Below, one piece after another: positions 16,435 to 30,201 of a stretch of 33,336 nt of DNA (position 1 is its first letter; each line of letters starts with the position of its first letter). The position numbers and the translations under genes were made by a program. This DNA comes from Gemmata massiliana (GTDB taxonomy: Bacteria; Planctomycetota; Planctomycetia; Gemmatales; Gemmataceae). The DNA lies in NCBI GenBank assembly GCA_000531095.1, contig HG799467.1, positions 532,346 through 565,681 of the forward strand, in the 5' to 3' direction. Below the pieces are notes generated by a model. That model was not told where the DNA came from. It saw only the letters and a program-made list of their open reading frames with translations, and searched no databases.

Positions 16435-17606
16435 AATACCCGGCAATACGAAGGTATTGATGGTTGGCAACGGAGCGTAACTATCACTCGTCCAGACCGC
16501 CATGACTATCATTCATCCCCTGCTTCTGCAGACGGCTGATGCAGCCACAGCAGACGGATTCACACAACAACGGCCTTCGGTTGGCCGCTGTGCGCTCGGA
16601 ATCGACGGAGACGAACTATCTTCCAGTCCGTGTCGGGATCAACAGAAGCATCGCGAGGCGGGCCGTGGAGGTGTGCGGGGTGTATCACGTTTCAGACCGC
16701 GGGCAAAGTGCCCTTGCTCCACTGCCAGACGCGATCTTGTGCGTCCGAGTCACCGTATGGGTATGAATATGGTTCGCAATTGCAATTCGAGCGGGTACAC
16801 GCTGGCAACCTTCGCGTCAGCAAACCGCCACCTCGTCGCCGGACTGCACGTTGTGCGAAGTCGTGTTGAACGAAGACTCGATATTAGCGATGCGAAGGGC
16901 AACGACAAATGATGTGCGGAAGCAAGGAAACGTTGCAAGTCGGTCGCTCACAAGCGCCTACAAAAAAACACCTGCAAATTTCGTGAACCAGATTGACAGG
17001 GCCTAGTTGGCGAGAGATTATACCACCCTACAATGCAGGCCTAGCAACGAAAGTCGACGCTTGCAAGCTCATGACCGTGTAGGTTATCAAAAATAAGGAA
17101 CTGTAATTAAGATGTTTGCTAAAGCGTAATGCCGATTCGCTGTCTCCTTCATAATCTCTTTCGAGACACTCTGAAGTGAGTTCCGATTAAACGCCGGCGG
17201 TAGAGCCGTGGCCCGGCTACAGTCGGTAATGCGTTCCCACCGGACGTGCGAGGCGGCCGTGAAGTTGTTCCTCTCGATTTAGGACCCAATGCACCACGCA
17301 CAGCGTGCCGTACCCGAGTCGTGGATCTCTGTTATCGTCCCAGTAATCCGCGGGGCCAGCCTGCTGCCTTGCGCGCTCGCCTTGGTCTGGGATCGGGAGT
17401 CGCGGGCGAGTGATGGGCGTGGCGAGGGGGCTGGTTCTGGAAATTCATATGGCTTTGCGGAACGGGGCCGGGCGCGCCCCGTAGCTTGGTCGCATGATGC
17501 TTAGGAAATTGCTGAGACTACAGCTAGGCCAAAGGCCTATGAGAAGGAAGCGTAAATGCTCCCTTTAAGTGGCAAGCACCGGAAGGAATATTTGCACAAC
17601 GCGAAT
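16435..17606. other. Gene-poor stretch at the junction of two compositional regions
   Basis: About 1.2 kb without a gene I can support. Several open frames overlap between 16500 and 16910 but none shows a motif or a ribosome binding site. At 17205-17282 a short frame reads VARLQSVMRSHRTCEAAVKL before a stop and may be a decayed coding fragment. Small inverted repeats are present: ACGGGGC and GCCCCGT at 17462-17468 and 17476-17482, and TAGGCC-AAA-GGCCTA at 17525-17539. GC content falls over this interval. Confidence 0.4.
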
Positions 17607-17636
17607 TTGACATCACTGTTCTTAAATAGTGATAAT
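17607..17636 (+). promoter_or_regulatory. Strong sigma-70-type promoter with an inverted repeat between the boxes
   Basis: A perfect -35 box TTGACA (17607-17612) is followed after 18 bases by GATAAT (17631-17636), five of six matches to the -10 consensus; TGATAA at 17-base spacing is the alternative. Between them ATCACT (17612-17617) and AGTGAT (17628-17633) are perfect inverted repeats ten bases apart, overlapping the -10 box, as expected for a repressor operator. Transcription would start near 17643 and lead into the small cysteine-rich gene at 17703. Confidence 0.65.
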
Positions 17637-17639
17637 AAT

Positions 17640-17682
17640 TCTAGCCCGCGCCCGGCTGATGGTCGGCGGGGCATGGGTTAGA
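17640..17682 (+). promoter_or_regulatory. Leader hairpin before the cysteine-rich gene
   Basis: TCTAGCCC (17640-17647) pairs with GGGTTAGA (17675-17682), with one G-U pair, enclosing a GC-rich partly self-complementary segment (CGCCCGGC...GTCGGCGGGGC). It would form right at the 5' end of the transcript from the promoter above and ends 20 bases before the start codon. It could stabilise the mRNA or act in control of translation. Confidence 0.45.
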
Positions 17683-17702
17683 GAGTTCCAGCGAGGTGTT
17701 TT

Positions 17703-18041
17703 ATGAGCAAGTGCTTCGGTTTCGGTATGTTACTCACAGTGTGCCTAGCGATGTCGTACATGGGGTATGTTAGGGCGAACACTCCAACCCCGAAATGGGA
17801 CTGTAGGGGGAATTGGGATTGCAGGACCGCCAACCCCAAAGTCCAAAACGACGCAAACGGCCAAGCGTGCGACCTGAGTAAGACTCCAGGGGGATTGAAC
17901 CCCGGCAATGTTCCAGTGTGCGACTACACAGGAAACAATCTCGACGCCTGCATAATCGGTGGATTCAAGCCATACGCCTGCCCGTGTACTCTTGTGGCTA
18001 CAGGAGCAGGCAGCTGGGTGAACTTCCTCGGTTGTAAGTAA
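17703..18041 (+). CDS. Small secreted protein with eight cysteines
   Basis: A 112-aa protein with a clear Sec signal peptide (MSKCFGFGMLLTVCLAMSYM, cleavage probably near GYVRA-NTPTP). The mature part of about 87 residues has eight cysteines, in WDC-RGN-WDC, QAC, PVC, DAC, YACPC and the C-terminal GCK, so four disulfides are possible after export. Charge is low and Gly, Pro, Asn and Trp are common. I recognise no family; a secreted peptide, toxin, bacteriocin-like product or surface structural protein would all fit. The start ATG 17703 has GCGAGGTG upstream. It is the first gene after the strong promoter, and LolA-like, DUF1573 and pseudopilin genes follow, so those may serve its export or folding. 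Confidence 0.65.
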   Translation: MSKCFGFGMLLTVCLAMSYMGYVRANTPTPKWDCRGNWDCRTANPKVQNDANGQACDLSKTPGGLNPGNVPVCDYTGNNLDACIIGGFKPYACPCTLVATGAGSWVNFLGCK

Positions 18042-18093
18042 GCAACAAAGCCGTGTGCGGCGTCTGCTTGTGCGGTCGCAGCACGCGGCTATT

Positions 18094-18163
18094 AAGTGGC
18101 TCGGGCGTAACCTCCAAAAACCTTTGAAAAGCGAGGTTTTCAGAGGTTGTGTCCGAGCCTCTT
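18094..18163 (+). ncRNA. 70-base two-part hairpin between the cysteine-rich gene and the LolA-like gene
   Basis: Bases 18094-18114 and 18143-18163 are inverted repeats: 17 of 21 match as DNA and 20 of 21 pair as RNA when G-U is allowed. Inside, AAAACCT and AGGTTTT form a second perfect 7-bp stem. A preceding pair (AGCCGTGTGC at 18051-18060 and GCACGCGGCT at 18081-18090, one mismatch) adds a further stem. The G-U changes that keep pairing favour an RNA function: partial terminator, attenuator or processing site that would let the first gene be expressed more than the rest. Confidence 0.55.
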
Positions 18164-18228
18164 AAAGATACATCTTTGACGATCATTGCGCCTGCCGAGT
18201 CTGCTAACTACAGGAAGGGTGATGCGAC

Positions 18229-19296
18229 ATGCGATCAAATGGGTATAAATGTTTGGCGGCAAGCTCTTTAATCGTTATCGCCGCGAGTGGTGGTGCGTAC
18301 GGTGATGTAAGCAAGTCCGAGCGAACTTTGCTAGAGCGGACGATGCGAGACTACCAATCGGCAGTTGAGACTATTCGCACCTTACATTGTCGTGTCAAAG
18401 AGGAAGCAACGACTCCACAGGGCCAAACTCGCACCGAAATCGAATTTGATAAAGACTTGAATGAGTTGGCAGCCACTGTCCGAGTAGGAGACACTCGGGT
18501 TAAATCCTTGTTTAAAAATGGAAGAAATATCACGGCAACGATCGCGGGTCCCAGTCTCAAAACAAGTCAAATTACAGGTGAAATTGATCCGACGGGCAGT
18601 CCTGAGCAATTTCCTGCATGGCGAATGATTCTTCCTCCAGCTGTCTATGTAAAGGCAAATGAGCAACTCGCCTTTGCTGAAGCGATTGGTCGCGAACCGG
18701 CAATAGTTCAACATGTTAAAGAATTGGACGACGGCGTTGAGGTCGATCTTGATGATGCGTATGGGCGTCGGGCGGTACTGTTTAGTAAAAAATATAATTA
18801 CATGATTAGTAAGGTGACTTTTACTTCCAAGGATGCGGGTACTGTCGCAGTTTCAGAGTATAAGATGCGGGAGTATTTGCCGGGGGTGCATTTTATTGAA
18901 CAGGGGACGACGCGGATGGCTGTAAAAGGGAAGCAAATTAGCGAAACAATCTACCAAATCAGCAACGTCAAAATAAACGAGCGCGTTCCGCGGGACGTGT
19001 TTAGCGTCAAGTTTCACCCGGGAAGCGGAGTGCGAGACAGGACACAGGACAAAGTGCTCAAGGTATTAGCCGATGGGAGCCTTGGAAGTGAGCACCCGGA
19101 CATTCATCTCTCAACAGGTCAGCCGTTGGAGGCTCGTGACCCAATCGAAGTTACTACAGATGAGCCGCCCTCTTCGTATCGGTGGGTAATAGCGGCAGCG
19201 AGCGCGATTCTCTTTTCGGCTGGCGTCCTATGGATAATTCGCCGGCGCCATTCTCGTGAAAAACAAAATTCTGAGTCAGCATCTGGAGTAAAATAA
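18229..19296 (+). CDS. LolA-like periplasmic protein anchored by a C-terminal helix
   Basis: A 355-aa protein. Residues 1-25 are a signal peptide (LAASSLIVIAASGGAYG). The body has the run of short beta strands of the LolA/lipoprotein-carrier fold and ends with NERVPRDVFSVKFHPGSGVR, a pattern I know from planctomycete members of this superfamily. A transmembrane helix follows at about 318-338 (WVIAAASAILFSAGVLWII) with a basic cytoplasmic tail (RRRHSREK). It would face the periplasm and bind a lipid or acylated ligand, but the ligand is unknown. AGGAAGGGTG precedes ATG 18229. Its TAA overlaps the next ATG by one base (TAATG), so it is translated together with the DUF1573 gene. A second member of the family is at 21478. 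Confidence 0.6.
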   Translation: MRSNGYKCLAASSLIVIAASGGAYGDVSKSERTLLERTMRDYQSAVETIRTLHCRVKEEATTPQGQTRTEIEFDKDLNELAATVRVGDTRVKSLFKNGRNITATIAGPSLKTSQITGEIDPTGSPEQFPAWRMILPPAVYVKANEQLAFAEAIGREPAIVQHVKELDDGVEVDLDDAYGRRAVLFSKKYNYMISKVTFTSKDAGTVAVSEYKMREYLPGVHFIEQGTTRMAVKGKQISETIYQISNVKINERVPRDVFSVKFHPGSGVRDRTQDKVLKVLADGSLGSEHPDIHLSTGQPLEARDPIEVTTDEPPSSYRWVIAAASAILFSAGVLWIIRRRHSREKQNSESASGVK

Positions 19297-20408
19297 TGGT
19301 AGGAAATACAAGAGGGCGATTAACAATCTGCCTGGTTGGCGTACTTGCTATTGGGCTGACTGTATCTGCATGGTGGCAGAACGAGATCAAAAAAATTTGG
19401 GCGCTAGCAACTAAATCGACCCCCGTGTATGAGGGGCCATCGTACGTTGACTTAGGGTCACATGAAGAGGGGCAAATCGCAGAAACCAGCTTCTGGGTAG
19501 CAAATCGTGGCGGCGGACAATTAATTATAGATCATATCCAGAGCAGTTGTTCGTGTGCCGGCCTAGAATGGGAGATTGATGCTCAACGTCATAGAGCCGA
19601 AACCATCACACTTAACTCTGGCGAAAAAGTGAAGTTTTTTGCTAGAGTGTCGGTTCGAGGGCCAGTAAATCAGCCTTTCCGAAACAGCATACACTTCCGT
19701 ACCAATGACCCGCTTGTGCCTGAGGGAATGATCGAGTTGCTGGTGCCGAATATTACGGGAGGGGCGTCTGTGCATCCATCAGGAATTGCTTTTGGACAAG
19801 TGCCAGTTGGAGCACACGAGATTCGACTGATTGATGTACTTGACCGACGATCGCCGCCGCGATCCATAACAAAAATATCAACAACCAATGATAAAATAAT
19901 ATCTACGCGAGTCTTGCCCGTGGCAGATAAGAATTCTACGATCGAGGCTGGCGCTCGACTCATTGGAAAGATAGAAGTTAGTATCAAGTGCGATTCGTCT
20001 CGCGTAGTCCAGGAAAAAGTGTATGTGACGATTGATCAGGATGCTCGCCCACTTGAAGTGCCTGTTTCGGGCGAGGTGCAGCCGCCTGTAGAAGTGTACC
20101 CTAAGTCTCTGACGTTGCCGCGATCTGCATCTGGAGGTCTCATCTATCACTCGCAATGCTTATGTCGCTCTGTGGCTGGGACGCCATTAGATCTGACAGT
20201 TGAGTCGGCCCCCTTGGGGCTCGTAGTCCGGATCGAGGAATCGAAGGATTCGCCCGCTGAGCGATTAGTGCGGATTGAGTGGGATCAATCAAAAGATGAG
20301 CCTGGGGTGCCTGAAGTACGTGAAGTTCGACTGGTGGCGAAGTGGGCTGATAAGCAAGCGAAGCTAGTGATACCAGTCGACTGTCGTATACCTGGAGGGG
20401 CGAAATGA
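19296..20408 (+). CDS. DUF1573 protein, membrane-anchored, with SCSCA motif
   Basis: A 370-aa protein with an N-terminal membrane helix (ICLVGVLAIGLTVSAWW) and an exported body. The DUF1573 signature is clear: FWVANRGGGQLIIDHIQSSC followed by SCAG, with C85 and C87 in the CxC pair. The rest consists of Ig-like beta repeats (ASVHPSGIAFGQVPVGAHEI; VEVYPKSLTLPRSASGG). DUF1573 is widespread in planctomycetes and Bacteroidetes and has no settled function; the vicinal cysteines and frequent neighbourhood to MauE/DoxX proteins hint at redox or surface assembly. It overlaps the previous gene by 1 base and the next by 4 (ATGA), so this is a tight operon. Confidence 0.75.
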   Translation: MVGNTRGRLTICLVGVLAIGLTVSAWWQNEIKKIWALATKSTPVYEGPSYVDLGSHEEGQIAETSFWVANRGGGQLIIDHIQSSCSCAGLEWEIDAQRHRAETITLNSGEKVKFFARVSVRGPVNQPFRNSIHFRTNDPLVPEGMIELLVPNITGGASVHPSGIAFGQVPVGAHEIRLIDVLDRRSPPRSITKISTTNDKIISTRVLPVADKNSTIEAGARLIGKIEVSIKCDSSRVVQEKVYVTIDQDARPLEVPVSGEVQPPVEVYPKSLTLPRSASGGLIYHSQCLCRSVAGTPLDLTVESAPLGLVVRIEESKDSPAERLVRIEWDQSKDEPGVPEVREVRLVAKWADKQAKLVIPVDCRIPGGAK

Positions 20409-21292
20409 GAGCGTCTCCACGATATGGGGTCAGTCTTGTTGAGATACTAGTTGTTCTGGGACTAATGGGTTTACTCATAGGACTATTGATGCCGGCCGTC
20501 CAGGCGGTCCGCGGCCGCGCGAAACAGGTCGAATGTCAGAATAATTTGCGGCAATTAGGTTTGGCGTTACACAATTACCATTCCGCGCAAGGTCGCTTTC
20601 CAACGCTGCCGGGCCAATGGCAGCCACAGGACCCAAATAGGCGTTTCAGCTGGATGGTACATATTCTCCCACACATTGAACAGGAGACTCTGTGGCAGAG
20701 CTCAGTAACAGCGTTGGCAACAGAGCCGTCCTGTTGGGTCAACCCGCCACATGTGGGATATTCGACAGTAATTAAGACTTACGTGTGTTCTGCCGATTCT
20801 CGCCTGCTCACGCCTCAGCCTATTGGTGATGGGCTGACAGCTGCGTATGCGTCTTACATTGGCGTCTGCGGCAACGCGAGTACGACCAACGGTGTACTGG
20901 GTTTATCTGGACCTGGTGTGCGACTCGAGGACATTACCGACGGCGCGAGCCAGACGGTCATGGCGGGGGAGCGCCCTCCGCCTGATTCGCTGCAGGCGGG
21001 GAGATGGTACTCATCTGACTCCCCATATATTACTTCAATGCCACCGGGGCCTGATGACGGATTGTCTATACCGGGGGTGTTGTTTCCAAATGATATATGT
21101 CATGGGAGTTTAGATTTTAGGCCGGGGCGACTTAGTAATCCCTGCGACCGATATCATTTTTGGAGCTTGCACTCTGGAGGAGCGAATTGGCTTAGAGCGG
21201 ATGGTGGGGTCTTGTTCATTACCTATGCAAATTCATCAATAATGCCAGCTCTTGCGACTCGTGCTGGAGGAGAGAGTGTCAATTTGCCGTAG
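20405..21292 (+). CDS. DUF1559 pseudopilin-like protein
   Basis: A 295-aa protein with a type IV pilin-like N terminus: short basic leader, then GVSLVEILVVLGLMGLLIGL and LMPAVQAVR, the place where prepilin peptidase cuts after Gly and methylates the new N terminus. The DUF1559 body follows (CQNNLRQLGLALHNYHSAQG) with the family H-X9-DG motif near the C terminus, HSGGANWLRADG. The family is greatly expanded in planctomycetes and works at the cell surface or in a type II secretion/type IV pilus-like machine. The leader has Val-Ser where most members have Phe-Thr. ATGA overlap with the DUF1573 gene shows co-translation. The length, near 300 aa, is normal. Confidence 0.9.
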   Translation: MRASPRYGVSLVEILVVLGLMGLLIGLLMPAVQAVRGRAKQVECQNNLRQLGLALHNYHSAQGRFPTLPGQWQPQDPNRRFSWMVHILPHIEQETLWQSSVTALATEPSCWVNPPHVGYSTVIKTYVCSADSRLLTPQPIGDGLTAAYASYIGVCGNASTTNGVLGLSGPGVRLEDITDGASQTVMAGERPPPDSLQAGRWYSSDSPYITSMPPGPDDGLSIPGVLFPNDICHGSLDFRPGRLSNPCDRYHFWSLHSGGANWLRADGGVLFITYANSSIMPALATRAGGESVNLP

Positions 21293-21477
21293 TGTTGACT
21301 CGGATCGATCGGCTTATTAGGGCAAGCTAACGAGGCGAAATTGCACGCATAAGGTGCCTCGGAATTGGGTCACCGCAGGCAGTATCTGATCCGCGCAACA
21401 TTCTTGATGTCTTTGGTGTGGTGCAAAAGAAAGTCTAGATTTGTTCGCCCGTCTCACCAACGCTATTTCAGTGGATT
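21293..21477. other. Spacer within the cluster
   Basis: 185 bases without a supported gene. The frame 21365-21562 overlaps the start of the next gene and reads poorly. I see no terminator, so read-through from the operon above into the next gene is possible. Confidence 0.3.
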
Positions 21478-22446
21478 ATGTGCATATTTTATCTGGTACT
21501 GTTTGCATCAATTGCCTGCGTCTTTCCGAATTCCAAATGTCACGAATTGCCTCGGGTGGTAAGTAATCATCGATCGACTGTAGCGTCTATTGAGAATGTT
21601 CTGTGTTCATTTGAAATAGAAGAGTATCGCCCAGATGGTGTATTGGTTTTTAGAGGCGATTACGCTAAATCTGACGGAGCGGTCAGGGTGCGTTACATAA
21701 AGGGCAATGTACGGGTTGAGCAGTATGTGAATGAGAACAGGCTGGTGGTCACCAGAAAATGTATTTATCCGATGGGTGTCCAGCCAAAAGTTGAGATTCT
21801 GCGATACGATGATGCGCCACTTGAATTGGGCGATATCTGGATGCTCGGCCTTCTAAAATTCACCGCCCCAGACGGTGCGTCACTTGTGCCACTCGATAGA
21901 TTGTGGAGCTTAGGAACAAAGGTTCTGTCTTGTGATTGGATAAAAAACGACGGAAAGATCGCTTTTCAGGTTGAGGCGGCGCACAAGGCGGCGCACATGC
22001 AATTTTGGCTTGATCCTGACAATGGCCTAATGGTTAATAAGCATGTTGTGCGTAGCACTGATAATGTGCTAGGGATCCATAGTGAGTTTGAGATCCGGAA
22101 GTTTCAGAAATTTGCACAAGGCATTAGTTTTCCTAGGGTTGCTACGGTAAAAAATTATCAATATAATAAGATGATACACTCGCAGATCATTAAAGTTTTT
22201 GACATAAAAGTTAATACTATGAATCCGCCAAGTGCAAAGTCGCTGGAGATCGGCCTGCCACGAGGAGCTATTGTAGTCGATAAAATTCACAACGCTACCT
22301 ATGCCACAAGTGGAAGCGAGTATAGCGAAATTTCAGAATCGCCTGGAGTTCTGGTGCGTCAGATTGTATTTGTAATATTGACGATTGTTGCAATTTTTGC
22401 CACCTTGGTCGCCTATCGTGCTAGTCAGCTCAGGTTGACCTCTTGA
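21478..22446 (+). CDS. Second LolA-like membrane-anchored protein
   Basis: A 322-aa protein built like the one at 18229: an N-terminal signal (MCIFYLVLFASIACVF), a beta-rich body, a terminal pattern KSLEIGLPRGAIVVDKIHNA that matches the C-terminal strand of the LolA-like family, and a C-terminal transmembrane helix (VLVRQIVFVILTIVAIFATL). Overall sequence similarity to the first copy is low, so they are old paralogues or separate recruits. There is a possible lipid-attachment or signal cleavage site near FPNSKC, but no canonical lipobox. The start ATG 21478 has no strong ribosome binding site. Function in the cluster is inferred only: periplasmic carrier or sensor. Confidence 0.5.
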   Translation: MCIFYLVLFASIACVFPNSKCHELPRVVSNHRSTVASIENVLCSFEIEEYRPDGVLVFRGDYAKSDGAVRVRYIKGNVRVEQYVNENRLVVTRKCIYPMGVQPKVEILRYDDAPLELGDIWMLGLLKFTAPDGASLVPLDRLWSLGTKVLSCDWIKNDGKIAFQVEAAHKAAHMQFWLDPDNGLMVNKHVVRSTDNVLGIHSEFEIRKFQKFAQGISFPRVATVKNYQYNKMIHSQIIKVFDIKVNTMNPPSAKSLEIGLPRGAIVVDKIHNATYATSGSEYSEISESPGVLVRQIVFVILTIVAIFATLVAYRASQLRLTS

Positions 22447-22806
22447 GTGGCTGGCTGGCTTATTGCGACTATTAACTTTATCCGCGCCTGCGTGTGACTC
22501 TTATTTTGTGAAATATTTGCCTTGTGCTGGCTGTCTATTAGGGCGCCCGGTCGGCCTATGATTGATGCAATATTTCGTTGTAGATGGTGTCCGCAAAGGA
22601 AGTGGAGAAGCAGTAGAAAGTGGCATTCTTTCGGAACGGTGTCTGTGAGTATTGGTGTTATCCGAGGCTTCTTCTTTATCTATACGCCGTACAAGGCATA
22701 AGTAATATCGTTTCGTAATTTTCCGGATTGTCAATCGTGATTTTATACGTAGAGATTGTGTCGATTGTGACACAGGTATAGTGGGGCTTATTTGGTGATT
22801 GCGAAT
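22447..22806. other. Spacer before the first GT-C gene
   Basis: About 360 bases of moderate AT content without a clear gene. A 47-codon frame at 22558-22701 (MIDAIFRCRWCPQRKWRSS...) is strongly basic and has no good ribosome binding site, so I do not call it. A transcription start for the following glycosyltransferase may lie here, for example around TTGTCA at 22729, but no convincing -10 partner was found. Confidence 0.3.
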
Positions 22807-24642
22807 ATGCAAACTCAGCGTGGTATAGTATCTTTGCTTGCTAAATGGCCATTTGTGTTCTTGCTTTTTTTTCAAACTTGCCTTCTTGGTTGGGCCTCAA
22901 CGCGGCACAGTCCAGGTATCGATGAAGTTGGACATCTGGCGGCAGGATTGCACCACTGGGAGACAGGCCGGTTCGATCTTTACCGAGTCAACCCTCCCTT
23001 GGTAAGGGTGGTTGCAACCGCTCCGCTCCGGGTGATAGGAGTGAGTGTTCCCGAAATTGAATTTGATAGTCGACCGCCTAAGCGTCCGGAATTTGACCTT
23101 GGTCGAGCTCTTGTGAGTCGCGATGGTGAGCGGTCATTTTGGTATTTTACAATGGCTCGGTGGTCGTGCCTCCCCTTTAGTTGGCTAGTAACATATGTGA
23201 TCTATCGCTGGGGACGAGATCTTTACGGTCGTCATGCTGGGTTGTTTTCTGCAAGCCTATGGACGATCTGCCCGACAGCCATCGCTAATGCTCAAATGAT
23301 AACGCCTGATACTGGAGCATGCGCTTTCGGTGTTGCGGCGTGTTATCTCTTTTGGCGATGGCTTCGCGCTCCGAGTTGGATATCTGCCTTTGCGGCCGGC
23401 CTATTACTTGGGATCTGCGAGTTGTGCAAGACAACTTGGCTGATTCTCTTTGCGGTTTGGCCGGCCGTGTGGATCTTGTACTATCTCAGTGATAAACGAA
23501 ATTGGACAGAGTGGCGGAGTGGTCTCGCTCAACTAGCTTCGGCGTTCTTTTTGGCGGTATGTTTACTGGATCTCGGATACGGCTTCGAGGCTCTCGGATG
23601 TCGCCTTGGTGAATTTTCTTTTACTAGTAATGCCCTGACCACAGAAGTTGAACCGGGGACACGTATCAATCGCTTCTCCGGAAGCGTCATAGGCGATTTG
23701 CCTGTCCCCCTTCCGCAAAATTATATCCTGGGTATCGACGTTCAGAAAAGAGATTTTGAATTGCGTATGTGGTCGTATCTTCGCGGCGAGTGGAGAACCG
23801 AGGGGTGGTGGTACTATTACCTGTATGGCCTCCTCGTAAAAACTCCCATCGGTACACTTGTCCTGGCGGGGTGTTCGGTCATTGTCTGGCCTTTTATACG
23901 AAACCCAATGGCCAACTGGCGAGACGAATGCGTCCTCCTTGCTCCAGGGCTCGCAATTATTGGATTTGTAAGTTCCCAGACTGGCTTCAATCACCATCTA
24001 CGGTACGTGCTCCCCGCACTACCCTTTATCTTTGTCAGCATTGGCCGTCTGTGGGTCTATCGAGGGCGATTCTTTCTCGCATTGCGGCTCTTTGTTGTTG
24101 CAATGGCATGCCTAGCAGCAATTAGTAGCCTGCGTGTATATCCGCACTCAATGTCGTATTTTAATGAAGTCGCTGGTGGGCCATTGAATGGTGGAGATCA
24201 TTTGATTGATAGTAGCTTAGATTGGGGGCAAGACTTGCTATATTTGAAATCTTGGTACGACAAGCACCCAGAGGCCCGGCCATTCGGCTTGGCATATTTC
24301 GGCTTTGTTGACCCGCAGGCCGCAGGTATCGCATTCCAGTTGCCCCCACCAGGCCCAGACGAATCAAGGGACTTCCTAGCACCCGAAGCTACTGCCCGGC
24401 TTGGTCCTCAGCCAGGGTGGTACGCAGTCAGTGTCACCCTTTTACGAGGTTACCGATATCGTGCCCCTGATGGACAAGGTGGAATGAGACACGTCGGAAA
24501 GCCCGATTACGACTATTTTCTCCGATTCAAGCCTGTCGACACCGCTGGTTATTCAATTTGGATCTATCACATAACTGAGGAAGAGTGCGCTCGGGTTCGA
24601 GCCTTAATGGGCATGCCTCAAACTAATTCCGTCAATGAATGA
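22807..24642 (+). CDS. GT-C glycosyltransferase of the ArnT/PMT (GT39/83-like) type
   Basis: A membrane protein of about 611 aa with roughly ten hydrophobic segments (FVFLLFFQTCLLGW; FAAGLLLGICELCKTTWLIL; IGTLVLAGCSVIVWPFI; LRLFVVAMACLAAISSL). The first outer loop has the acidic motif expected in GT-C enzymes, SPGIDEVGHLAAGLHHW, followed by RVNPPLV. Such enzymes take sugar from a polyprenyl-phosphate donor and place it on a lipid or protein outside the membrane. A soluble C-terminal part of about 150 residues contains DSSLDWGQDLLYLKSWY. I choose ATG 22807 because GGTGA lies eight bases upstream; TTG 22792 and GTG 22795 are in-frame alternatives. It fits with the second GT-C gene (25381) and the GT2 gene (27093), which could make the lipid-linked sugar. 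Confidence 0.75.
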   Translation: MQTQRGIVSLLAKWPFVFLLFFQTCLLGWASTRHSPGIDEVGHLAAGLHHWETGRFDLYRVNPPLVRVVATAPLRVIGVSVPEIEFDSRPPKRPEFDLGRALVSRDGERSFWYFTMARWSCLPFSWLVTYVIYRWGRDLYGRHAGLFSASLWTICPTAIANAQMITPDTGACAFGVAACYLFWRWLRAPSWISAFAAGLLLGICELCKTTWLILFAVWPAVWILYYLSDKRNWTEWRSGLAQLASAFFLAVCLLDLGYGFEALGCRLGEFSFTSNALTTEVEPGTRINRFSGSVIGDLPVPLPQNYILGIDVQKRDFELRMWSYLRGEWRTEGWWYYYLYGLLVKTPIGTLVLAGCSVIVWPFIRNPMANWRDECVLLAPGLAIIGFVSSQTGFNHHLRYVLPALPFIFVSIGRLWVYRGRFFLALRLFVVAMACLAAISSLRVYPHSMSYFNEVAGGPLNGGDHLIDSSLDWGQDLLYLKSWYDKHPEARPFGLAYFGFVDPQAAGIAFQLPPPGPDESRDFLAPEATARLGPQPGWYAVSVTLLRGYRYRAPDGQGGMRHVGKPDYDYFLRFKPVDTAGYSIWIYHITEEECARVRALMGMPQTNSVNE

Positions 24643-24680
24643 TATGATTGGGTTTCGATTGGCTACTTAGGAGGAATGCC

Positions 24681-25361
24681 ATGCTGCGCAACAGTTATCA
24701 GCAGCGTCCGCTTCATCGTCTTGCTCTCGGTTTACCTTTTGGATTTGCTTTGATGACAATCGCCCTTGCCGGATGCTCACGGCCGAGCGATGGAGATCGG
24801 TTCGAGCGAATGGCTAAATGGGTCCGTGTTGGTCATGGGGACACAATCGATGCCACTCGGACTCCAGGTGTAACTGATTTCGATTTGTCAAAAGCCGCCG
24901 ATCTTCCTGGACTTCGTCACTTGATACTGGACGGTTGCCACATTACCGACTCGGGCCTTGCTCAGCTTGGCTCGCTCCCGGCTTTAGAGTCCTTGTCTTT
25001 GTCTGACACGAAAATAACCGACGCCGGCCTTGGGCAGCTTTTGCGGATGCCACGCCTTCGCTTTCTTCGCCTTGATCGATGCTTCATCACCGATGCTGGG
25101 TTAGCGTCTGTCGGGCAACTCCAAGATCTTCGTACGCTGTCTCTCTGGAAGACCAAGGTGACCGGCCGTGGCTTAGGTGAATTATCTCGTCTTCCGCATT
25201 TGTGTATCCTAAGTCTTGATGAAACCCAAGTAGCTGGTCACGATATAGAAGTGTTTAAAAAATCAAACTCGCTTCTTTATTTATCTGCTTGGTGGACTGA
25301 TGTGTCTCAATCTGATGCTCATCGATTGGAGACGGATTCACGTCTCCGTGTTAACTATTGA
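24681..25361 (+). CDS. Leucine-rich-repeat lipoprotein
   Basis: A 226-aa protein with a lipoprotein signal: hydrophobic stretch, then IALAGCSRPS, lipobox Cys at residue 32. After residue 75 come five or six short LRRs of about 24 residues with the planctomycete-type pattern (SLSLSDTKITDAGLGQLLRM; FLRLDRCFITDAGLASVGQL; TLSLWKTKVTGRGLGELSRL). It should be lipid-anchored and bind another protein. The start at ATG 24681 is chosen because GGAGG is six bases upstream; the in-frame TTG at 24648 lacks such a signal. It lies 38 bases after the GT-C gene and 19 bases before the next one, so the three are likely one operon. Confidence 0.75.
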   Translation: MLRNSYQQRPLHRLALGLPFGFALMTIALAGCSRPSDGDRFERMAKWVRVGHGDTIDATRTPGVTDFDLSKAADLPGLRHLILDGCHITDSGLAQLGSLPALESLSLSDTKITDAGLGQLLRMPRLRFLRLDRCFITDAGLASVGQLQDLRTLSLWKTKVTGRGLGELSRLPHLCILSLDETQVAGHDIEVFKKSNSLLYLSAWWTDVSQSDAHRLETDSRLRVNY

Positions 25362-25380
25362 GCGAGGCTTGTTTTATCTA

Positions 25381-26925
25381 ATGCGCATTCAATCTTCTAT
25401 GCTCGTTCTTGGCACCGTTACCCTGTTGGCTGCCTTGCTTCGGCTATACGGGTTGGGCGATCGTTGCCTATGGCTGGATGAAACTTTTGCTTGGCGGGCT
25501 ACACAGTTCACTATGGGAGAGATGCTCAGCCGGTGGAGTAACCCTTTTGTTGCAGAGAATCCGCCTCTCTTTCCCATGTTGCTCAACGGATGGGTTCGAT
25601 TTTTTGGGGATACAGAGTTCTCGATTCGCTTTCCTTCTGCCCTGGCCGGAGTCCTTACCGTCCCGGCGGCTTTTCTCTTGGTTCGGCAGTTGCTGCAGAA
25701 CGGTGTGGGAGAGGTTCGCGGGAACTGGCTTGGACTTATCTCAGCTGGCTTGATTGCCGTAAGCGAATTGCATGTTCACGAGGCGCGGCAAGCCCGGATG
25801 TACACCTTCGGCACCCTTTTTCTTTTGCTATCTGGATGGACATTGCTACGTGCATTGCGCCCCTCGGCCTCGAATTATTACTGGATTATGTTTTGTTTTT
25901 TTACAGTGCTTTTTTTATACACCCACAATCTATCATTGTTTAGCTGTTTGGGATATATCTTGTTCGGATCGGTGTTTCTAGGTCTTAAGTGGCTGCGAGC
26001 GATGGATGGACAGTCGCGGGCGATGATCAGCCGCAAGATTCTCGGGTTTACCGCAGCGATTGTCGCCATCGCGGTGTTGTACATGCCGGCCGGGGTCGTG
26101 CTCATTGAGCGATCCTCGGAGACAACACGCGAAAATTCTTGGCTAGGCCCTATCACAGTTCGGCAAGCTGAGAAGTCGTTGGCCGAGGCTGTTTTGTCAT
26201 CGACTGCCTCGACGCGCCTGGATTCTGCTGGGTTAGGGATGGCCGGATTCATCGGGGTTTTTATGATTTTCGGATTTGCTATTAGACGAGGATGGGCGGG
26301 ATTATTTGTCGGATTGGCTGCAATTGTGCCGGTCGCCATGATGCTTTTTTACTCAATTGCATCAGGGACAAGTCTTTTTCTTCCTCGATATCTTACTTTC
26401 GCTCAGACTGCCTGTTTAGTTGCCATACCTGTAGCGCTACAAGCGGCACCTCGCCTTGTATCGCTTTTGGTCGCTACTTTTGTCTTTGGATTGGTAATCT
26501 GGAGCGGGATGCCATCCTATGAAGCGATTATAGATCGATCGGCCAAGCCTGGTATGCGCGCTGCGGCGGAATACATTCTGGAGCATCGAATGGCTAGAGA
26601 TGTCATTGCCACTCAGTCCGTATTCACTCAGACTAAATTATCGTATCACTCTCGCAACTTGTTTAGATCGCATTTAATAGCGGTAATCCCCAGTCGCCAT
26701 TTACACGGTGCGATCTTACTGAAGGACGATGAGGTTGCTTCTCCGGATGGCGTCTTTTCTCGTGATCTTTCAGGTTTTTGGTTTGTCTCCCTATCTGGTT
26801 ATGGTGACTCGGATAAAATTGGCTTCCCCGTCCCAGGTCGATGGCGGAACGTGGAGACTATTCGCTTCGCGCAGGACTACTGGTGGGAGGGTGAAGTCGT
26901 ATTGGATCATTACGTTCCAGAATGA
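25381..26925 (+). CDS. Second GT-C glycosyltransferase (PMT/GT39-like)
   Basis: A 514-aa membrane protein. The catalytic acidic motif in the first loop is plain: RCLWLDETFAWRATQF, followed by ENPPLFPMLLNGWVRFFG, the usual layout of prokaryotic GT39-like enzymes. About ten to twelve hydrophobic helices follow (MFCFFTVLFLYTHNLSLFS; LGFTAAIVAIAVLYMPAGVV; MAGFIGVFMIFGFAI; LVSLLVATFVFGLVIW) and then a soluble C-terminal part. The start ATG 25381 lies 19 bases after the LRR stop; an ATG at 25300 in the same frame would overlap the LRR gene by 62 bases and adds residues without family look. Two GT-C genes with an LRR lipoprotein between them suggests surface glycosylation. The substrate cannot be read from sequence. 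Confidence 0.75.
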   Translation: MRIQSSMLVLGTVTLLAALLRLYGLGDRCLWLDETFAWRATQFTMGEMLSRWSNPFVAENPPLFPMLLNGWVRFFGDTEFSIRFPSALAGVLTVPAAFLLVRQLLQNGVGEVRGNWLGLISAGLIAVSELHVHEARQARMYTFGTLFLLLSGWTLLRALRPSASNYYWIMFCFFTVLFLYTHNLSLFSCLGYILFGSVFLGLKWLRAMDGQSRAMISRKILGFTAAIVAIAVLYMPAGVVLIERSSETTRENSWLGPITVRQAEKSLAEAVLSSTASTRLDSAGLGMAGFIGVFMIFGFAIRRGWAGLFVGLAAIVPVAMMLFYSIASGTSLFLPRYLTFAQTACLVAIPVALQAAPRLVSLLVATFVFGLVIWSGMPSYEAIIDRSAKPGMRAAAEYILEHRMARDVIATQSVFTQTKLSYHSRNLFRSHLIAVIPSRHLHGAILLKDDEVASPDGVFSRDLSGFWFVSLSGYGDSDKIGFPVPGRWRNVETIRFAQDYWWEGEVVLDHYVPE

Positions 26926-26937
26926 TTTGCATTAACG

Positions 26938-27060
26938 GTGTCAGATTTCAATGCAGCTGATCAGGCGATTGCGGATCGCCCATCATCTTGGTTAATCGCA
27001 GCCCATGGCTTTCCATCGAGTGGAGAAGTGATTCCCTTCTCGGATTTTGTCGGTGGCTAG
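26938..27060 (+). CDS. Possible 40-aa small protein
   Basis: From GTG 26938 the DNA reads VSDFNAADQAIADRPSSWLI then AAHGFPSSGEVIPFSDFVGG and stops at TAG 27058. The composition is that of a real protein rather than noise and there is no competing frame. The GTG lies 12 bases after the stop of the GT-C gene but I see no good ribosome binding site. It may be a small gene, or the detached C-terminal end of a longer protein. No family is recognised. Confidence 0.3.
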   Translation: MSDFNAADQAIADRPSSWLIAAHGFPSSGEVIPFSDFVGG

Positions 27061-27092
27061 CCGTTTGAGATGTTAAGTCGAAGGACAAGCCC

Positions 27093-27791
27093 ATGCTGGA
27101 AAATCAATCCGTGACGCGGCCGGTGTTGTCAATTATTGTCCCTGTGTATAACGAAGCTCGATATATTGAGGCTACCTTGGAACGATTGGTGGATAGGCCA
27201 TACCCTGGCGCCAATCAGGAAGTGATTGTCATTGATGATGGCAGTTCCGACAATACGCCATTGCTTCTCAATCGGTGGTCTGCTCGTCCTGGATTCCGCG
27301 TTCTTACTCACCAGTCTAACCGTGGTAAAGGCGCGGCGATTCGCACGGGCTTGGCCCATGTCACTGGTAAGATAGTAGCAATTCAGGACGCTGATCTCGA
27401 ATACGATCCTGATGATCTTATGGCTCTTATTGCGCCGATCGTCCGAGGCGAGGCTCGTGCTGTGTACGGGTCTCGATACCTCAATCTCACAAATCATCTG
27501 CCCTGGACTAAATATCGGGTGGCCGTGCATGTAATGAATGCTCTTACTCGCCTGCTTTATGGTATTCGCTTGACAGATGTGAACACTTGCTATAAAATCT
27601 TAAGCTCTGAGTTATACCTAAATCTTGATTTGCGATCAGAACGTTTTAATTTCTGCGCCGAAGTGACCGCCAAGCTGGCGCGGAACGGCGTTTGCATTCA
27701 TGAAGTGCCGATTCGTTATCACCCTCGCGGAAAAAAAGAGGAAAAAAAATTGGTTGGCGTGATGCGAAACAGTTTGCTACTGCTCTTTTAG
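27093..27791 (+). CDS. GT2 polyprenol-phosphate glycosyltransferase (DPM1-like), C terminus frameshifted
   Basis: A GT-A glycosyltransferase that would load a sugar onto polyprenyl phosphate at the cytoplasmic face. Motifs: LSIIVPVYNEARYIEATLER, IDDGSSDNT with D48-D49, SNRGKGAAIRTGL, and the metal-binding IQDADLEYDPDD with D99 and D101. NTCYKIL and FNFCAEVTAKLAR fit DPM1-like enzymes. In the direct frame it ends at 27791 as KKLVGVMRNSLLLLF. One base shift in the A8 run at 27742-27749 gives KKIGWRDAKQFATALLVWRF, which is the expected family C terminus, and ends at TAA 27836-27838. So the functional protein is probably about 247 aa, made by slippage or hidden by one missing A. It supplies a logical donor for the two GT-C enzymes upstream. 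Confidence 0.8.
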   Translation: MLENQSVTRPVLSIIVPVYNEARYIEATLERLVDRPYPGANQEVIVIDDGSSDNTPLLLNRWSARPGFRVLTHQSNRGKGAAIRTGLAHVTGKIVAIQDADLEYDPDDLMALIAPIVRGEARAVYGSRYLNLTNHLPWTKYRVAVHVMNALTRLLYGIRLTDVNTCYKILSSELYLNLDLRSERFNFCAEVTAKLARNGVCIHEVPIRYHPRGKKEEKKLVGVMRNSLLLLF

Positions 27792-27838
27792 TTTGGCGAT
27801 TTTGGCCTGTTCCATCACTACCTGGTTTTCAGAGCTAA

Positions 27839-28215
27839 GACGATCTCCCTACTTGCGTCAAGTTGCATCTTTTTATTACAAATTCTTGCTTGATGATTGC
27901 TGATTTGCCGGAAGACGAATTTGACTTCGACTTGACTGGGAGAATTGCTTCGCCGCGAGATTTCCTAGTTTGAATGGCCGCGGCCATGATGCCATTGCAT
28001 AGGCAGGCTCCCTCGTTGTCATCGTTTTCTGTACGGGTCGAGGCTTTTAGCTTAGTGGCTCTCGGAGCGGCTCGCTGTCTGGCTACTGGATGTGATCTTG
28101 GTTCTCGTTTCAGTTGCTCGTTGTTCGTTCCGTTAGGCCTATTTGTTGAACTTGCTTAACAGTATAGCGTGAGTATTCCTGCTTTCCGCAAGTTGAGTCG
28201 TCGGGAGGGCTACCG
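27839..28215. other. Gap between the GT2 gene and the transposase remnant
   Basis: About 375 bases with no supported gene. A 26-codon frame near 27892-27972 reads MIADLPEDEFDFDLTGRIAS and PRDFLV before TGA, acidic and protein-like but without a start signal. I leave it uncalled. The region carries no clear repeat. Confidence 0.3.
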
Positions 28216-28753
28216 ATGGCGGCGCCGGAAGTCATGGCCCTCGGGCTAGCGCTCGCGCCCTACCTTCGACGGTTCCGAGGCATTTTCGTCCAGGACCGAA
28301 CGGCCGCCCCCTTCGATACGTATTGTTGCGGGTCGCTATCGGATCTGGCACCTAAGCGCTTCGAGCCCATCGCGCTCGAAGCCGGGACCGCGGTACAGGC
28401 CCTCCCAGGAGTTCCTGGTCACCGCCCGGTGGGATCACACCGCGGCCCACGAAGTCTTTCAGAAACACATCGGTGCAATCGTCGCGGGCCTCTTCCGACC
28501 GACGCTCCGGGCCTCGTTCTGGTGGGCAACGGCCACAACGGTATGGGTGGCGGACCTGGAGCACGCCTTGGTCGCCGCCGTCAACGAAACGACGGGAGAG
28601 GTCAAATACGTCCTAACCAGCGCGACCATGGCCCCGTTGGCCCGGGTACTGGGCACGGCATTCCGCCGGCGGGTCGTGGAGCATGTTATCGCCTCTGGAA
28701 GTAAGACGCGGGGCTCATGGGTTCATATGGGCGCTGACAAAACCCGTGATTGA
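28216..28753 (+). pseudogene. Degraded IS701/DDE_5-type transposase
   Basis: Fragments of one transposase in two frames. 28216-28403 gives LAPYLRRFRGIFVQDRTAAP then LSDLAPKRFEPIALEAG, the N-terminal pattern of IS701-type transposases. After an apparent extra C in CCC (28404-28406) the frame changes and reads QEFLVTARWDHTAAHEVFQK, then directly NETTGEVKYVLTSATMAPLA and RVLGTAFRRRVVEHVI, which belongs to the C-terminal third of the family. The whole catalytic middle, normally about 200 residues, is missing. The element is dead. It sits in the GC-poorer cluster but is itself GC-rich, like the flanking DNA, so it entered from the host or another GC-rich source. Confidence 0.75.
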
Positions 28754-28789
28754 GACAGTTTTCAAGGCGTCTTCGAGTTTTTGTCAGCG
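28732..28789. repeat. 11-bp inverted repeats after the transposase remnant
   Basis: CGCTGACAAAA (28732-28742) and TTTTGTCAGCG (28779-28789) are perfect reverse complements with 36 bases between. AAGACGC (28703-28709) and GCGTCTT (28767-28773) form a second, interlaced pair, so the order is A, B, A', B'. The site lies just where the transposase similarity ends and may hold one end of the dead IS or two facing ends. No second copy of this repeat was found upstream of 28216. Confidence 0.45.
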
Positions 28790-28924
28790 TCTGTAAAGCG
28801 TCACACAGAACATTCCCATCCGAGTGGAGCCGCGGCATGAGCTGTGTCCTCGCTCTGGGGCGAGTCCTGTACTCGATGATATGTCGCATCAATACGCGCA
28901 TTTGCAATGTTGGAGATAAGCGAA

Positions 28925-29521
28925 ATGTTATACGTGACCTTATTATCTCGTTGTGTGCCTAGAATTATTTTTGTTGCATGCGGTCTTTTCTTACTCCTTG
29001 CGGCAGTACTTAAGACCGCACAGGTTGGTTCCGGCGTAGGCTCGGGGAACGATCTTATTACTTACCGACCTGCTTTCATCACGCTGGTGGTGTTCGAATT
29101 TGCTTTGGGTGCCTGGCTTGTCTGCGGGATCTATCCGCATACAGCACGAACCGTTGCAATCCTTTGTTTTTCTATCTTTACACTTGCCTCTGTATACCAA
29201 GCTGCTCTTGGACGGGTTTCGTGTGGGTGCTTTGGTCATTTTGAGGTTGCGCCATGGATCACGGTTCTTGCCGACACCATTGCAACCGTACTGTTGTCGC
29301 AACTCCCCCCCCACCCGGCGTACGCTGGAATCGCACAACAGCTTGCATCGCCGGGGCAATCGGCTTTTTTGCCATTGTTCTGCTCTGGCGGGCGCTTTCG
29401 CCACCGTCAGAATTATCTCGCATCGTGGTCACTCCTGCGACCATTAACCTTGGAATCATTCGTGCCGGCCAACGCGCGGACGCGAGCTTCGAGTTGGCCA
29501 ACCGAACGGGCCATGATGTAA
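28925..29521 (+). CDS. MauE/DoxX-type redox-associated membrane protein, probably fused to the following DUF1573
   Basis: Four membrane helices are visible in the first 130 residues (IIFVACGLFLLLAAVLK; AFITLVVFEFALGAWLVC; TVAILCFSIFTLASVY; WITVLADTIATVLLSQ) with the family signature GRVSCGCFGHF, whose cysteines pass electrons in related proteins. This is the MauE/DoxX family, which works in disulfide chemistry outside the membrane. I start it at ATG 28925 with GGAGA eight bases upstream; ATG 28907 is in frame but weaker. Beyond about residue 127 the frame (PAYAGIAQQLASPGQSAF...) loses protein character, while another frame carries a DUF1573 domain. The change falls at a C8 run (29305-29312), and one extra C would give a single MauE-DUF1573 protein of about 266 aa. 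I think the fusion is the true gene. Confidence 0.7.
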   Translation: MLYVTLLSRCVPRIIFVACGLFLLLAAVLKTAQVGSGVGSGNDLITYRPAFITLVVFEFALGAWLVCGIYPHTARTVAILCFSIFTLASVYQAALGRVSCGCFGHFEVAPWITVLADTIATVLLSQLPPHPAYAGIAQQLASPGQSAFLPLFCSGGRFRHRQNYLASWSLLRPLTLESFVPANARTRASSWPTERAMM

Positions 29522-29733
29522 AAATTGAATCGGTCGAATCGACCTGCCCTTGCCTATCAGTCCGACACGAGACTGATGCAATTGGACCTGGAAGGGCAAT
29601 TCGGGCCACTGTTGTGCTTGACTTGTCGACAGAGCCAGGCTTCACGGGATCTCTCGGCATAACATTAACAGCAAGGTCAGCTAATAATGATGTTGTATAC
29701 GTCATATTAATAACTGTAGACGTTACTCTATAA
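29254..29733 (+). CDS. DUF1573 domain, in a frame overlapping the MauE-like gene
   Basis: From about 29330 the frame reads CIAGAIGFFAIVLLWRAL, a membrane helix, then VVTPATINLGIIRAGQRADA, SFELANRTGHDVKIESVEST and CPCLSV, the DUF1573 signature with a CxC pair. It ends TVDVTL at 29733. The first 20 codons from ATG 29254 (MDHGSCRHHCNRTVVATPPP) are only a shadow of the MauE helix, so 29254 is probably not a true start, although GAGG stands nine bases before it. Either the domain starts internally without a clear signal or, more likely, it is the C-terminal half of the MauE-like protein with one base missing in the C8 run. Its pairing with MauE fits the redox theme of the cluster. Confidence 0.65.
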   Translation: MDHGSCRHHCNRTVVATPPPPGVRWNRTTACIAGAIGFFAIVLLWRALSPPSELSRIVVTPATINLGIIRAGQRADASFELANRTGHDVKIESVESTCPCLSVRHETDAIGPGRAIRATVVLDLSTEPGFTGSLGITLTARSANNDVVYVILITVDVTL

Positions 29734-29973
29734 TATATTGTTCTCAAAATTGTGTTTTTCTGAAATGATCTGTATCGACGCAGGTTGCAAATGAATAGGT
29801 GTGTTAAGTATTATTATTTATGTACGTTTCTATATGTCATGCTGTCAATTTGAACATATGTTCGCTGTCGCATGCATCCCTGTTCGGTCGCCCCGGTATC
29901 TAGATTACCGCCGCCATGCTCGCCGCTTATCCGCATGGCTCGGTTACCGCGCCTCGTCATCCCATGGGCTTGA
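29734..29973. other. AT-rich end of the cluster
   Basis: About 240 bases without a gene. The first 100 bases are AT-rich (TAATATATTG, then TATTATTTATG around 29813); after about 29880 the DNA becomes GC-rich again. This marks the right-hand compositional border of the cluster. Confidence 0.4.
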
Positions 29974-30165: not shown

Positions 30166-30201
30166 TGCCTCACAGAATCCTGGAAACTACTTTTAATGTG
30201 A

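What the first reader, a model, noticed from the sequence alone, without database searches (positions are those of the whole stretch)
17607..29733. A GC-poor planctomycete cluster built around a secreted eight-cysteine protein
Seen: a strong promoter, a small exported protein with eight cysteines, then LolA-like, DUF1573 (CxC), DUF1559 pseudopilin with 1- and 4-base overlaps, a second LolA-like protein, GT-C, LRR lipoprotein, GT-C, DPM1-like GT2, and MauE plus a second DUF1573. Known: MauE/DoxX proteins act in disulfide chemistry, DPM1-like enzymes make polyprenyl-linked sugars for GT-C enzymes, pseudopilins drive export. Inference: one pathway that exports, oxidises and glycosylates a surface or secreted product. 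I know of no described system with this composition.
Basis: partly seen in the sequence, partly recalled or inferred. Interest (0 to 1): 0.8.

Follow-up and report, generated by a model that had tools for sequence, protein, structure and literature searches.

The report
Planctomycete cassette for cysteine-rich exported proteins
The small cysteine-rich exported protein is the variable first gene of a gene cassette that recurs in many planctomycete bacteria, probably to mature and deliver a disulfide-rich protein, while the sugar-transfer genes beside it here are mostly not part of that cassette.

Summary
The observation largely holds: a 112-aa exported protein with 8 mature cysteines, then a LolA-fold protein, a DUF1573 protein with CxC and a DUF1559 pseudopilin (1- and 4-base overlaps). 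A rule without sequence (small, signal-like, at least 7 Cys) finds 24 ORFs in 69 loci; 21 lie just upstream of a LolA-like gene (2.2% expected) and three elsewhere in cassettes. Loci of other families, chosen only for a LolA-like gene, give 6 in 4 of 15; 24 arbitrary 20-kb stretches give none. The Gemmataceae small proteins share one divergent Cys scaffold without Pfam, NCBIfam or PDB match. The small gene tracks DUF1573 (Fisher p 7e-6), not DUF1559 (p 0.46). The window's genome holds two further, more divergent cassettes.

Corrections: 'MauE plus a second DUF1573' is one gene in relatives, split here at a poly-C run; only one other fetched cassette carries it. The glycosyltransferases and LRR protein show no consistent link, although one GT-C type lies beside three loci of other families.

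Best mechanism (inferred, about 0.4): extracytoplasmic maturation of a disulfide-rich exported protein, with DUF1573's CxC as thiol partner and the LolA-fold protein as membrane-anchored holder. Function is untested; my paper searches found no description.

The parts
17607..17636 (+). promoter-like site (TTGACA-18-GATAAT)
   Evidence: 11 of 12 matches; 5 promoter-like sites in the region against 6.9 expected, so suggestive only
17703..18041 (+). small exported Cys-rich protein (112 aa, 8 Cys in the mature part); variable first gene of the cassette
   Evidence: no Pfam or NCBIfam and no PDB sequence match
18098..18159 (+). strong RNA hairpin between the small gene and the LolA-like gene; possible attenuator or processing site
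   Evidence: first 149 nt of the gap z -8.9; not shared (nine other gaps folded, best z -2.9)
18229..19296 (+). LolA-fold protein with signal peptide, C-terminal helix and basic tail
   Evidence: Foldseek best E 1.3e-8, LolA3; Z up to 16.1
19296..20408 (+). membrane-anchored (N-terminal helix, by eye) DUF1573 protein with CxC (residues 85 and 87)
   Evidence: E 8e-9; both Cys invariant in 23 of 23
20405..21292 (+). DUF1559 (SBP_bac_10) pseudopilin
   Evidence: E 1e-31; N_methyl E 0.0045
21478..22446 (+). second LolA-like paralogue of the same family
   Evidence: (matches the family profile, E 1e-76, after joining it in iteration)
22792..24642 (+). PMT-type GT-C; optional neighbour, homologues about 38-41% identical beside cassettes in other families
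24648..25361 (+). LRR protein with lipobox; neighbour, not shown to belong to the cassette
25300..26925 (+). second GT-C; neighbour, not conserved
27093..27791 (+). GT2, polyprenyl-phosphate-sugar synthase-like; neighbour, not consistently conserved
28907..29733 (+). one MauE-DUF1573 fusion gene in relatives, read here as two overlapping ORFs (28907-29521 and 29254-29733), frame change at the C run 29305-29312

Best explanation
A dedicated cassette for maturing and delivering a hypervariable, disulfide-rich exported protein. Shown: recurrent gene order and association; a common Cys scaffold in the Gemmataceae members; purifying selection on the small gene; predicted LolA/LolB fold of the second protein; an invariant CxC in the third. 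Inferred: the small protein is exported by Sec, cut by signal peptidase I and acquires its disulfides outside the cytoplasmic membrane. The membrane-anchored DUF1573 protein uses its CxC as thiol partner (oxidant or isomerase). The LolA-fold protein, held by its C-terminal helix, binds or carries the product. The DUF1559 pseudopilin, where present, carries it outward through the cell's shared type II/IV pilus machinery. The MauE-DUF1573 fusion, where present, would recycle the electrons. Some cassettes add a C39 peptidase that would trim the product.
For:: 21 of 24 Cys-rich secreted ORFs lie just upstream of a LolA-like gene; the other three also lie in cassettes; 6 such ORFs, in 4 of 15 LolA-only loci of other families, against 0 in 480 kb of control (P 4e-4); with DUF1573 next to LolA 22 of 31 have the small gene, without it 7 of 41 (p 7e-6); no such link to DUF1559 (p 0.46); even mature Cys count in 27 of 32. 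CxC in 23 of 23 cassette DUF1573 proteins; selenoprotein DUF1573 with UGC. MauE joined to DUF1573 in one protein in L052 and in the window's own genome. LolA/LolB fold; dN/dS 0.13-0.28 for four small-gene pairs (one saturated in synonymous sites). C39 domain in three cassettes. T2SSF in 95 of 95 family genomes.
Against: No biochemical data. The small protein could not be modelled (pLDDT 54.5). Nine LolA-like genes with DUF1573 have no intact small gene just upstream: none seen at L043, L057, L064, L132; broken or signal-less at L052, L056, L058, L067; L070 has it before a first, tandem LolA-like copy. Sixteen LolA-like genes with DUF1559 score as having neither small gene nor DUF1573 (one of them, L195, has both in another order), so LolA-like plus DUF1559 must have other uses. 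MauE is at only two cassettes. CxC could bind metal. T2SSF is universal in the family, so it does not test dependence. Loci are not phylogenetically independent, and the Cys-rich rule was set after seeing the first examples.
Confidence: 0.4

Rival explanations
1. The small protein is an antimicrobial or bacteriocin-like effector. LolA-like and DUF1573 serve its export or immunity, and C39 cuts a leader in some cassettes.
For: Hypervariable product with more constant partners; tandem copies (L044, L054, L242); broken copies; lower GC than flanks in 45 of 48 LolA-like loci, with or without the small gene; Peptidase_C39 in three cassettes and none in 545 kb of control; a GG just before the first Cys in both L140 products (read by eye); an ABC exporter in L050.
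Against: No toxin or bacteriocin family match. Small-gene pairs show purifying, not diversifying, selection. The LolA-like and DUF1573 proteins do not look like immunity proteins. In the C39 cassettes L194 and L242 the motif before the Cys core is not a clean GG.
Confidence: 0.2
2. The product is a structural surface part, such as the tip of a DUF1559 pilus-like fibre or a disulfide-linked wall component.
For: DUF1559 follows 18 of the 22 LolA-like genes that have both small gene and DUF1573. Planctomycete walls contain Cys-rich YTV proteins, and SBP_bac_10/N_methyl proteins are found in the detergent-soluble cell fractions and are often flanked by genes for secreted proteins (PMC8567305, section 18 read, passages of other sections).
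Against: The small gene does not track DUF1559 overall (20 of 45 with it, 9 of 27 without, p 0.46); the small-bearing LolA-like genes of L050, L125, L140, L238, L242 and L243 have no DUF1559 directly downstream. No wall domain match.
Confidence: 0.2
3. Metal cassette: the Cys-rich protein and the CxC of DUF1573 bind a soft metal such as copper or zinc.
For: High Cys content and CxC.
Against: Mostly even Cys numbers in exported proteins favour disulfides. Of the flank families shared by at least 3 of 32 loci, the ones that Pfam names are kinases, GT2, ABC-transporter ATPases and YDG/FG-GAP proteins, none a known metal transporter; rarer neighbours were not checked.
Confidence: 0.1
4. Chance neighbourhood: the genes are unrelated and merely adjacent.
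For: GT, LRR and MauE neighbours do vary.
Against: 21 of 24 placement against 2.2% expected; 0 Cys-rich ORFs in 480 kb of control.
Confidence: 0.03

Closest known systems
MauE/MauD maturation of methylamine dehydrogenase small subunit
   Same: Dedicated accessory genes for a small exported protein rich in disulfides; a MauE domain is near the cassette in the window and in L052. MauE has been speculated to help form disulfides (passage in PMC7794033; the rest recalled).
   Different: Here the product has no family match and is hypervariable, the main partner is DUF1573 with CxC, and MauE is at only two cassettes.
DUF1573 / OS_HP2 (seleno)protein family
   Same: DUF1573 domain with CxC; selenoprotein members have UGC (table passages in PMC9312934 and PMC13188914; NCBIfam NF041425 weak match).
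   Different: Score far below the NCBIfam cut-off (29.6 against 100); here it is part of a recurring cassette with a Cys-rich product.
LolA/LolB/RseB superfamily
   Same: Predicted fold, VIA Z up to 16.1.
   Different: Membrane-anchored by a C-terminal helix; the small protein of the cassette has no lipobox (by eye).
Planctomycete DUF1559 (SBP_bac_10) pseudopilins
   Same: The fourth gene is a member; such genes are often flanked by genes with signal peptides (PMC8567305 section 18).
   Different: That section names no Cys-rich, LolA-like or DUF1573 partner.
Double-glycine bacteriocin systems with C39 peptidases (recalled)
   Same: Three cassettes carry a C39 domain; products are small and Cys-rich.
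   Different: C39 is not fused to an ABC transporter in these three; products start with signal-like N-termini; in the 85 loci searched only three C39 proteins were found.

Membership tests
DUF1559 pseudopilin (PF07596) | domain match above gathering score | tested here: met
   111 bits against 23.3
DUF1559 pseudopilin (PF07596) | N-terminal methylation motif (PF07963) | tested here: inconclusive
   N_methyl E 0.0045, 16.9 bits against 21.2
DUF1573 (PF07610) | domain match above gathering score | tested here: met
   35.8 bits against 26.1; CxC invariant in 23 of 23
LolA-like (PF17131) by sequence | score above gathering cut-off | tested here: not met
   14.4 bits against 30; no LolA family in any of 28 members at E 0.01
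LolA/LolB superfamily by fold | LolA beta-barrel fold | tested here: met
   model pLDDT 86; Foldseek best E 1.3e-8; Z 16.1 over 219 residues at 5.0 A, Z 14.6 over 196 at 3.4 A
LolA lipoprotein chaperone by function | carries lipoproteins between membranes | not testable with these tools
   no lipobox seen in the small proteins, by eye
MauE (PF07291) | domain match above gathering score | tested here: met
   35.9 bits against 27; gene split here; the L052 copy is slightly below the cut-off (25.3)
OS_HP2 (seleno)protein NF041425 | score above curated cut-off of 100 bits | tested here: not met
   29.6 and 20.3 bits
Known family for the small protein | match in Pfam, NCBIfam or PDB sequences | tested here: not met
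   of 16 members one matches at E 0.044 (NCBIfam) and one at 0.078 (Pfam), none better; no PDB sequence at E 1
Own small-protein family (alignments A3 and A5) | shared Cys scaffold beyond composition | tested here: met
   21 of 22 held-out members beat all 50 composition shuffles, 16 of 22 beat all 50 shuffles with Cys fixed
Double-glycine bacteriocin | GG leader and C39 peptidase | tested here: not met
   window: no C39 protein found and no GG before the Cys core; three other cassettes have a C39 domain

The most novel reading that the evidence does not exclude
An extracytoplasmic CxC relay, comparable in logic to Mia40 (CPC) acting on small Cys-rich proteins in mitochondria (recalled), built from DUF1573 domains and in places joined to a MauE membrane redox module. 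It would be dedicated, one cassette at a time, to a fast-evolving family of disulfide-rich exported planctomycete proteins that act on or bind other cells.
Probability: 0.2. Interest if true: 0.85.

Novelty: new variant of a known kind. Interest (0 to 1): 0.62.

Why it matters
Planctomycetes carry tens of DUF1559 proteins per genome (74 in R. baltica, passage in PMC2754498; 91 with both pilin motif and SBP_bac_10 in T. immobilis, PMC8567305 section 18), and ten DUF1573 matches lie in the window's genome, without a known role. This ties some of them to a defined, exported, Cys-rich product and gives DUF1573 a testable function through its CxC. It also describes a hypervariable protein family that escapes family databases and single-sequence searches, so it can now be sought by gene context and assayed in cultured relatives.

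Tried and rejected
Single-sequence search with the window protein found only itself strongly, plus one weak match with stops, in 95 family genomes, and nothing in viral contigs. The small-protein model was too poor to search with. The selenocysteine idea for stops just after the signal region (L056 TAA, L058 TGA) was dropped because one of them is TAA. A hairpin as a general feature was rejected: of ten gaps folded only the window's is extreme. Direct repeats of 18 bases or more as island ends: none in 15500-33336. Rfam and tRNA: nothing in the window. Pseudopilin as the gene that the small one follows: no (p 0.46).

Results against the reading. Of 15 LolA-only loci in other families, 11 have no Cys-rich ORF. 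LolA-like genes at L180-L185, L189 and L191 have neither DUF1573, DUF1559 nor small gene; at L181 the gene upstream is a WD40-repeat protein. Six weak profile matches (E 0.01-0.09) are not shown to be members: four were fetched (L137, L138, L142, L143) and have no LolA-like gene, two were not fetched. The LolA profile hits only 14 of 392 phylum genomes and the small profile 3 of 392, with few candidates scored per genome (5 and 11). The hhalign match of the G466 product to the family is only 60% probable.

Limits of the counts. The Cys-rich rule was set after the first examples were seen; the control and the LolA-only loci are the fairer test. One search used an upper length of 180 aa and missed the 186-aa L194 product; searches used 200. 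The rule also misses L048 and L136, which the profile finds. L253 was left out of the LolA-only count because the small profile chose it. Six LolA-like genes at contig edges were left out of the Fisher table. L195 counts there as 'without', because its order differs. Remote LolA-like genes in L253 (hhalign 80%) and L238 (43%) are not counted.

Considered and rejected: chance neighbours; a general protein-glycosylation operon. Paper searches without a description of such a cassette: (hyphen spelling, no paper); only open-licence papers are held.
Full report
WHAT IS THERE. The window lies at the end of a contig of a 9.27-Mb genome. The stretch 17-30 kb is GC-poor and lies between a TrwC-type relaxase gene and a tyrosine recombinase gene.

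A search with the small protein alone found itself and one weak match containing stops (2 of 95 family genomes at E 0.01). The LolA-like protein hit 13 of 95 and the DUF1573 protein 16 of 95 genomes; 11 of the 15 LolA-like places lie beside a DUF1573 place. In fetched regions LolA-like, DUF1573 and DUF1559 mostly stand in one order. A small exported Cys-rich ORF, 101-152 aa with 8-12 Cys, stands just upstream of the LolA-like gene in many of them, although its sequence is nearly unrecognisable.

IS IT MORE THAN CHANCE. I then defined the small ORF without its sequence: 80-180 aa, a hydrophobic stretch in the first 32 residues, at least 7 Cys beyond residue 26, little Arg and His. In 69 loci (923 kb, 59 LolA-like ORFs) 24 such ORFs occur; 21 lie within 700 bp upstream of a LolA-like gene on the same strand. 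Such positions make up 2.2% of the strand-bases searched, binomial 4e-32. The other three are also in cassettes: two in L140 and one between LolA-like and DUF1559 in the window's own genome (L195, G000:C10). The rule was set after seeing the first examples, so two fairer tests matter more. In 24 arbitrary 20-kb stretches (480 kb, 20 from family genomes and four from other families) there is none. In 15 loci of other families fetched only for their LolA-like gene there are 6, in 4 of the 15 (6 against 0, P 4e-4). The window's genome holds two further cassettes: C3 (L194; same order, a product with 14 mature Cys) and C10 (L195; DUF1573, LolA-like, Cys-rich, DUF1559).

ONE FAMILY. Aligned, 23 small proteins (22 from Gemmataceae or G385, one partial) keep a Cys scaffold; six Cys columns are invariant and one nearly so. 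In leave-one-out tests 21 of 22 held-out members score above all 50 composition shuffles and 16 of 22 above all 50 shuffles that keep the Cys in place. In the family-wide profile search 18 places score below 1e-10 and all 18 stand beside a LolA-like gene; sixteen of these built the profile, one is a near copy, and G046:C485 was new. Six weaker matches are not shown to be members. A search of 392 phylum genomes gave three: the window's own, G385 (already in the profile) and G466. In G466 the hit (E 2.4e-5; hhalign 60%) is followed by a LolA-like protein (hhalign probability 80%) and a DUF1573 protein. Products in L140, L194, L195, L238 and L241-L243 share only the Cys-rich exported character; common descent is not shown. 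Four pairs of small genes show dN/dS 0.13-0.28, so the gene is kept by selection; one pair is saturated, and in the G045/G046 pair both dN (0.31 against 0.09) and dS (1.1 against 0.46) exceed those of the neighbouring LolA-like gene.

WHAT THE SMALL GENE GOES WITH. Among 72 LolA-like genes not at a contig edge (85 loci), the small gene is upstream in 22 of 31 when DUF1573 is adjacent and in 7 of 41 when it is not (Fisher p 7e-6). For DUF1559 the figures are 20 of 45 and 9 of 27 (p 0.46). Of the nine with DUF1573 but no intact small gene, four have broken or signal-less remnants (L052, L056, L058, L067) and one (L070) has the small gene before a first, tandem LolA-like copy. So the tie is to the CxC protein rather than to the pseudopilin. 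The loci are related, so these p-values are too generous.

THE PARTNERS. The LolA-like protein has a signal peptide, a well-modelled domain and a C-terminal helix with a basic tail. Its predicted fold is that of LolA/LolB (Foldseek best E 1.3e-8; VIA Z 16.1 for LolB of P. gingivalis, 15.1 for a DUF1329 protein, 14.6 for LolA3, about 10 for RseB). Sequence libraries miss it. DUF1573 proteins of the cassettes keep CxC in 23 of 23. Two reviews list a selenoprotein DUF1573 with UGC at the motif (table passages only), which points to redox use. MauE and DUF1573 are joined in one protein in L052, directly downstream of its cassette, and in G000:C8; in the window the same gene is split. MauE occurs in 60 of 95 family genomes, and of the places listed only the window's lies near a LolA-like place (by eye; the L052 copy falls below that search's threshold). 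Mature Cys counts are even in 27 of 32 products (p 6e-5; cleavage sites are rough estimates).

EXTRAS. Three cassettes carry a Peptidase_C39 domain: joined to DUF1573 in the window's own genome (L194), between LolA-like and DUF1573 in L140, and after a Cys-rich ORF in L242; none is in 545 kb of control. Short DUF1573 relatives of the window's second DUF1573 lie just upstream of the small gene in L053 and L194. The PMT-type GT-C of the window has homologues 38-41% identical beside cassettes in L125 (two) and L243 and a fragment in L238, all outside the family; one control stretch has partial matches at about 30%. GT2 (3 of 84 loci), the second GT-C (2 of 84) and the LRR protein (1 of 84) show no consistent link. 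LolA-like loci have lower GC than their flanks in 45 of 48, which fits recent exchange but does not prove it.

MECHANISM. Shown: association, order, Cys scaffold, predicted fold, invariant CxC, selection. Inferred: Sec export, disulfide formation with the CxC of DUF1573, holding by the LolA-fold protein, delivery by the pseudopilin where present. All 95 family genomes have T2SSF, so shared machinery is available, but this does not test dependence. Rivals are an antimicrobial, a surface part and a metal protein; the C39 finding keeps the first alive.

NOVELTY. No Pfam, NCBIfam or PDB sequence match for the product. Paper searches gave no description of such a cassette in the open-licence library, by titles, abstracts and the passages read; no held paper contains both DUF1559 and DUF1573. 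The nearest statement is that DUF1559/N_methyl genes in Tuwongella are often flanked by genes with signal peptides (PMC8567305, section 18 read whole, other passages seen). I call it a new variant of a known kind, since dedicated maturation of disulfide-rich exported proteins is a known kind, while this composition is not one I could find.

Noticed in passing
window 29305-29312: Run of eight C inside the MauE-DUF1573 gene at which the reading frame changes; phase-variable tract, decay or assembly error.
   Followed up: partly
window 18049-18159: Two stable hairpins between the small gene and the LolA-like gene (z -8.9), extreme only in this one of ten gaps folded; may set unequal expression.
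   Followed up: partly
window 12711-15407 and 31487-32509: TrwC-type relaxase with helicase (minus strand) and a tyrosine recombinase flank the GC-poor stretch; it may be or have been on a mobile element.
   Followed up: partly
L194:4156-5919 (G000:C3), L140:7352-7903, L242:4438-5277: Peptidase_C39 domains in or beside Cys-rich cassettes, once joined to DUF1573; apparently exported or membrane-anchored (by eye), unlike the usual ABC-transporter-linked form.
   Followed up: partly
L140:4988-5470 and 5516-6013: Two Cys-rich exported products with GG directly before the first Cys (IGGATGC, TGGDNAC) in a cassette with C39.
   Followed up: no
L056 upstream of 1605 and L058 upstream of 4079 (minus strand): Cys-rich small genes each with one in-frame stop just after the signal region (TAA, TGA) while the downstream genes are intact; L062 and L067 hold more decayed copies.
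   Followed up: partly
L211:6837-7676 and L212:5495-6331 (G000): In one genome MauE is followed in the same protein once by a CxxC, thioredoxin-like-looking tail (by eye; Pfam found only MauE) and once by DUF1573, which suggests that DUF1573 can stand in for a redox domain.
   Followed up: partly
L125:9069-13076, L243:8280-10097, L238 about 8591-8749: PMT-type GT-C genes (or a fragment) homologous to window 22792-24642 directly beside cassettes in other planctomycete families.
   Followed up: partly
L180-L185, L189, L191: A second group of LolA-like genes without DUF1559, DUF1573 or small Cys-rich gene; in L181 the gene upstream is a WD40-repeat protein, in L183 a similar one by eye.
   Followed up: partly
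L050:2985-4616: An ABC exporter gene on the same strand downstream of a cassette whose usual DUF1559 is missing.
   Followed up: no
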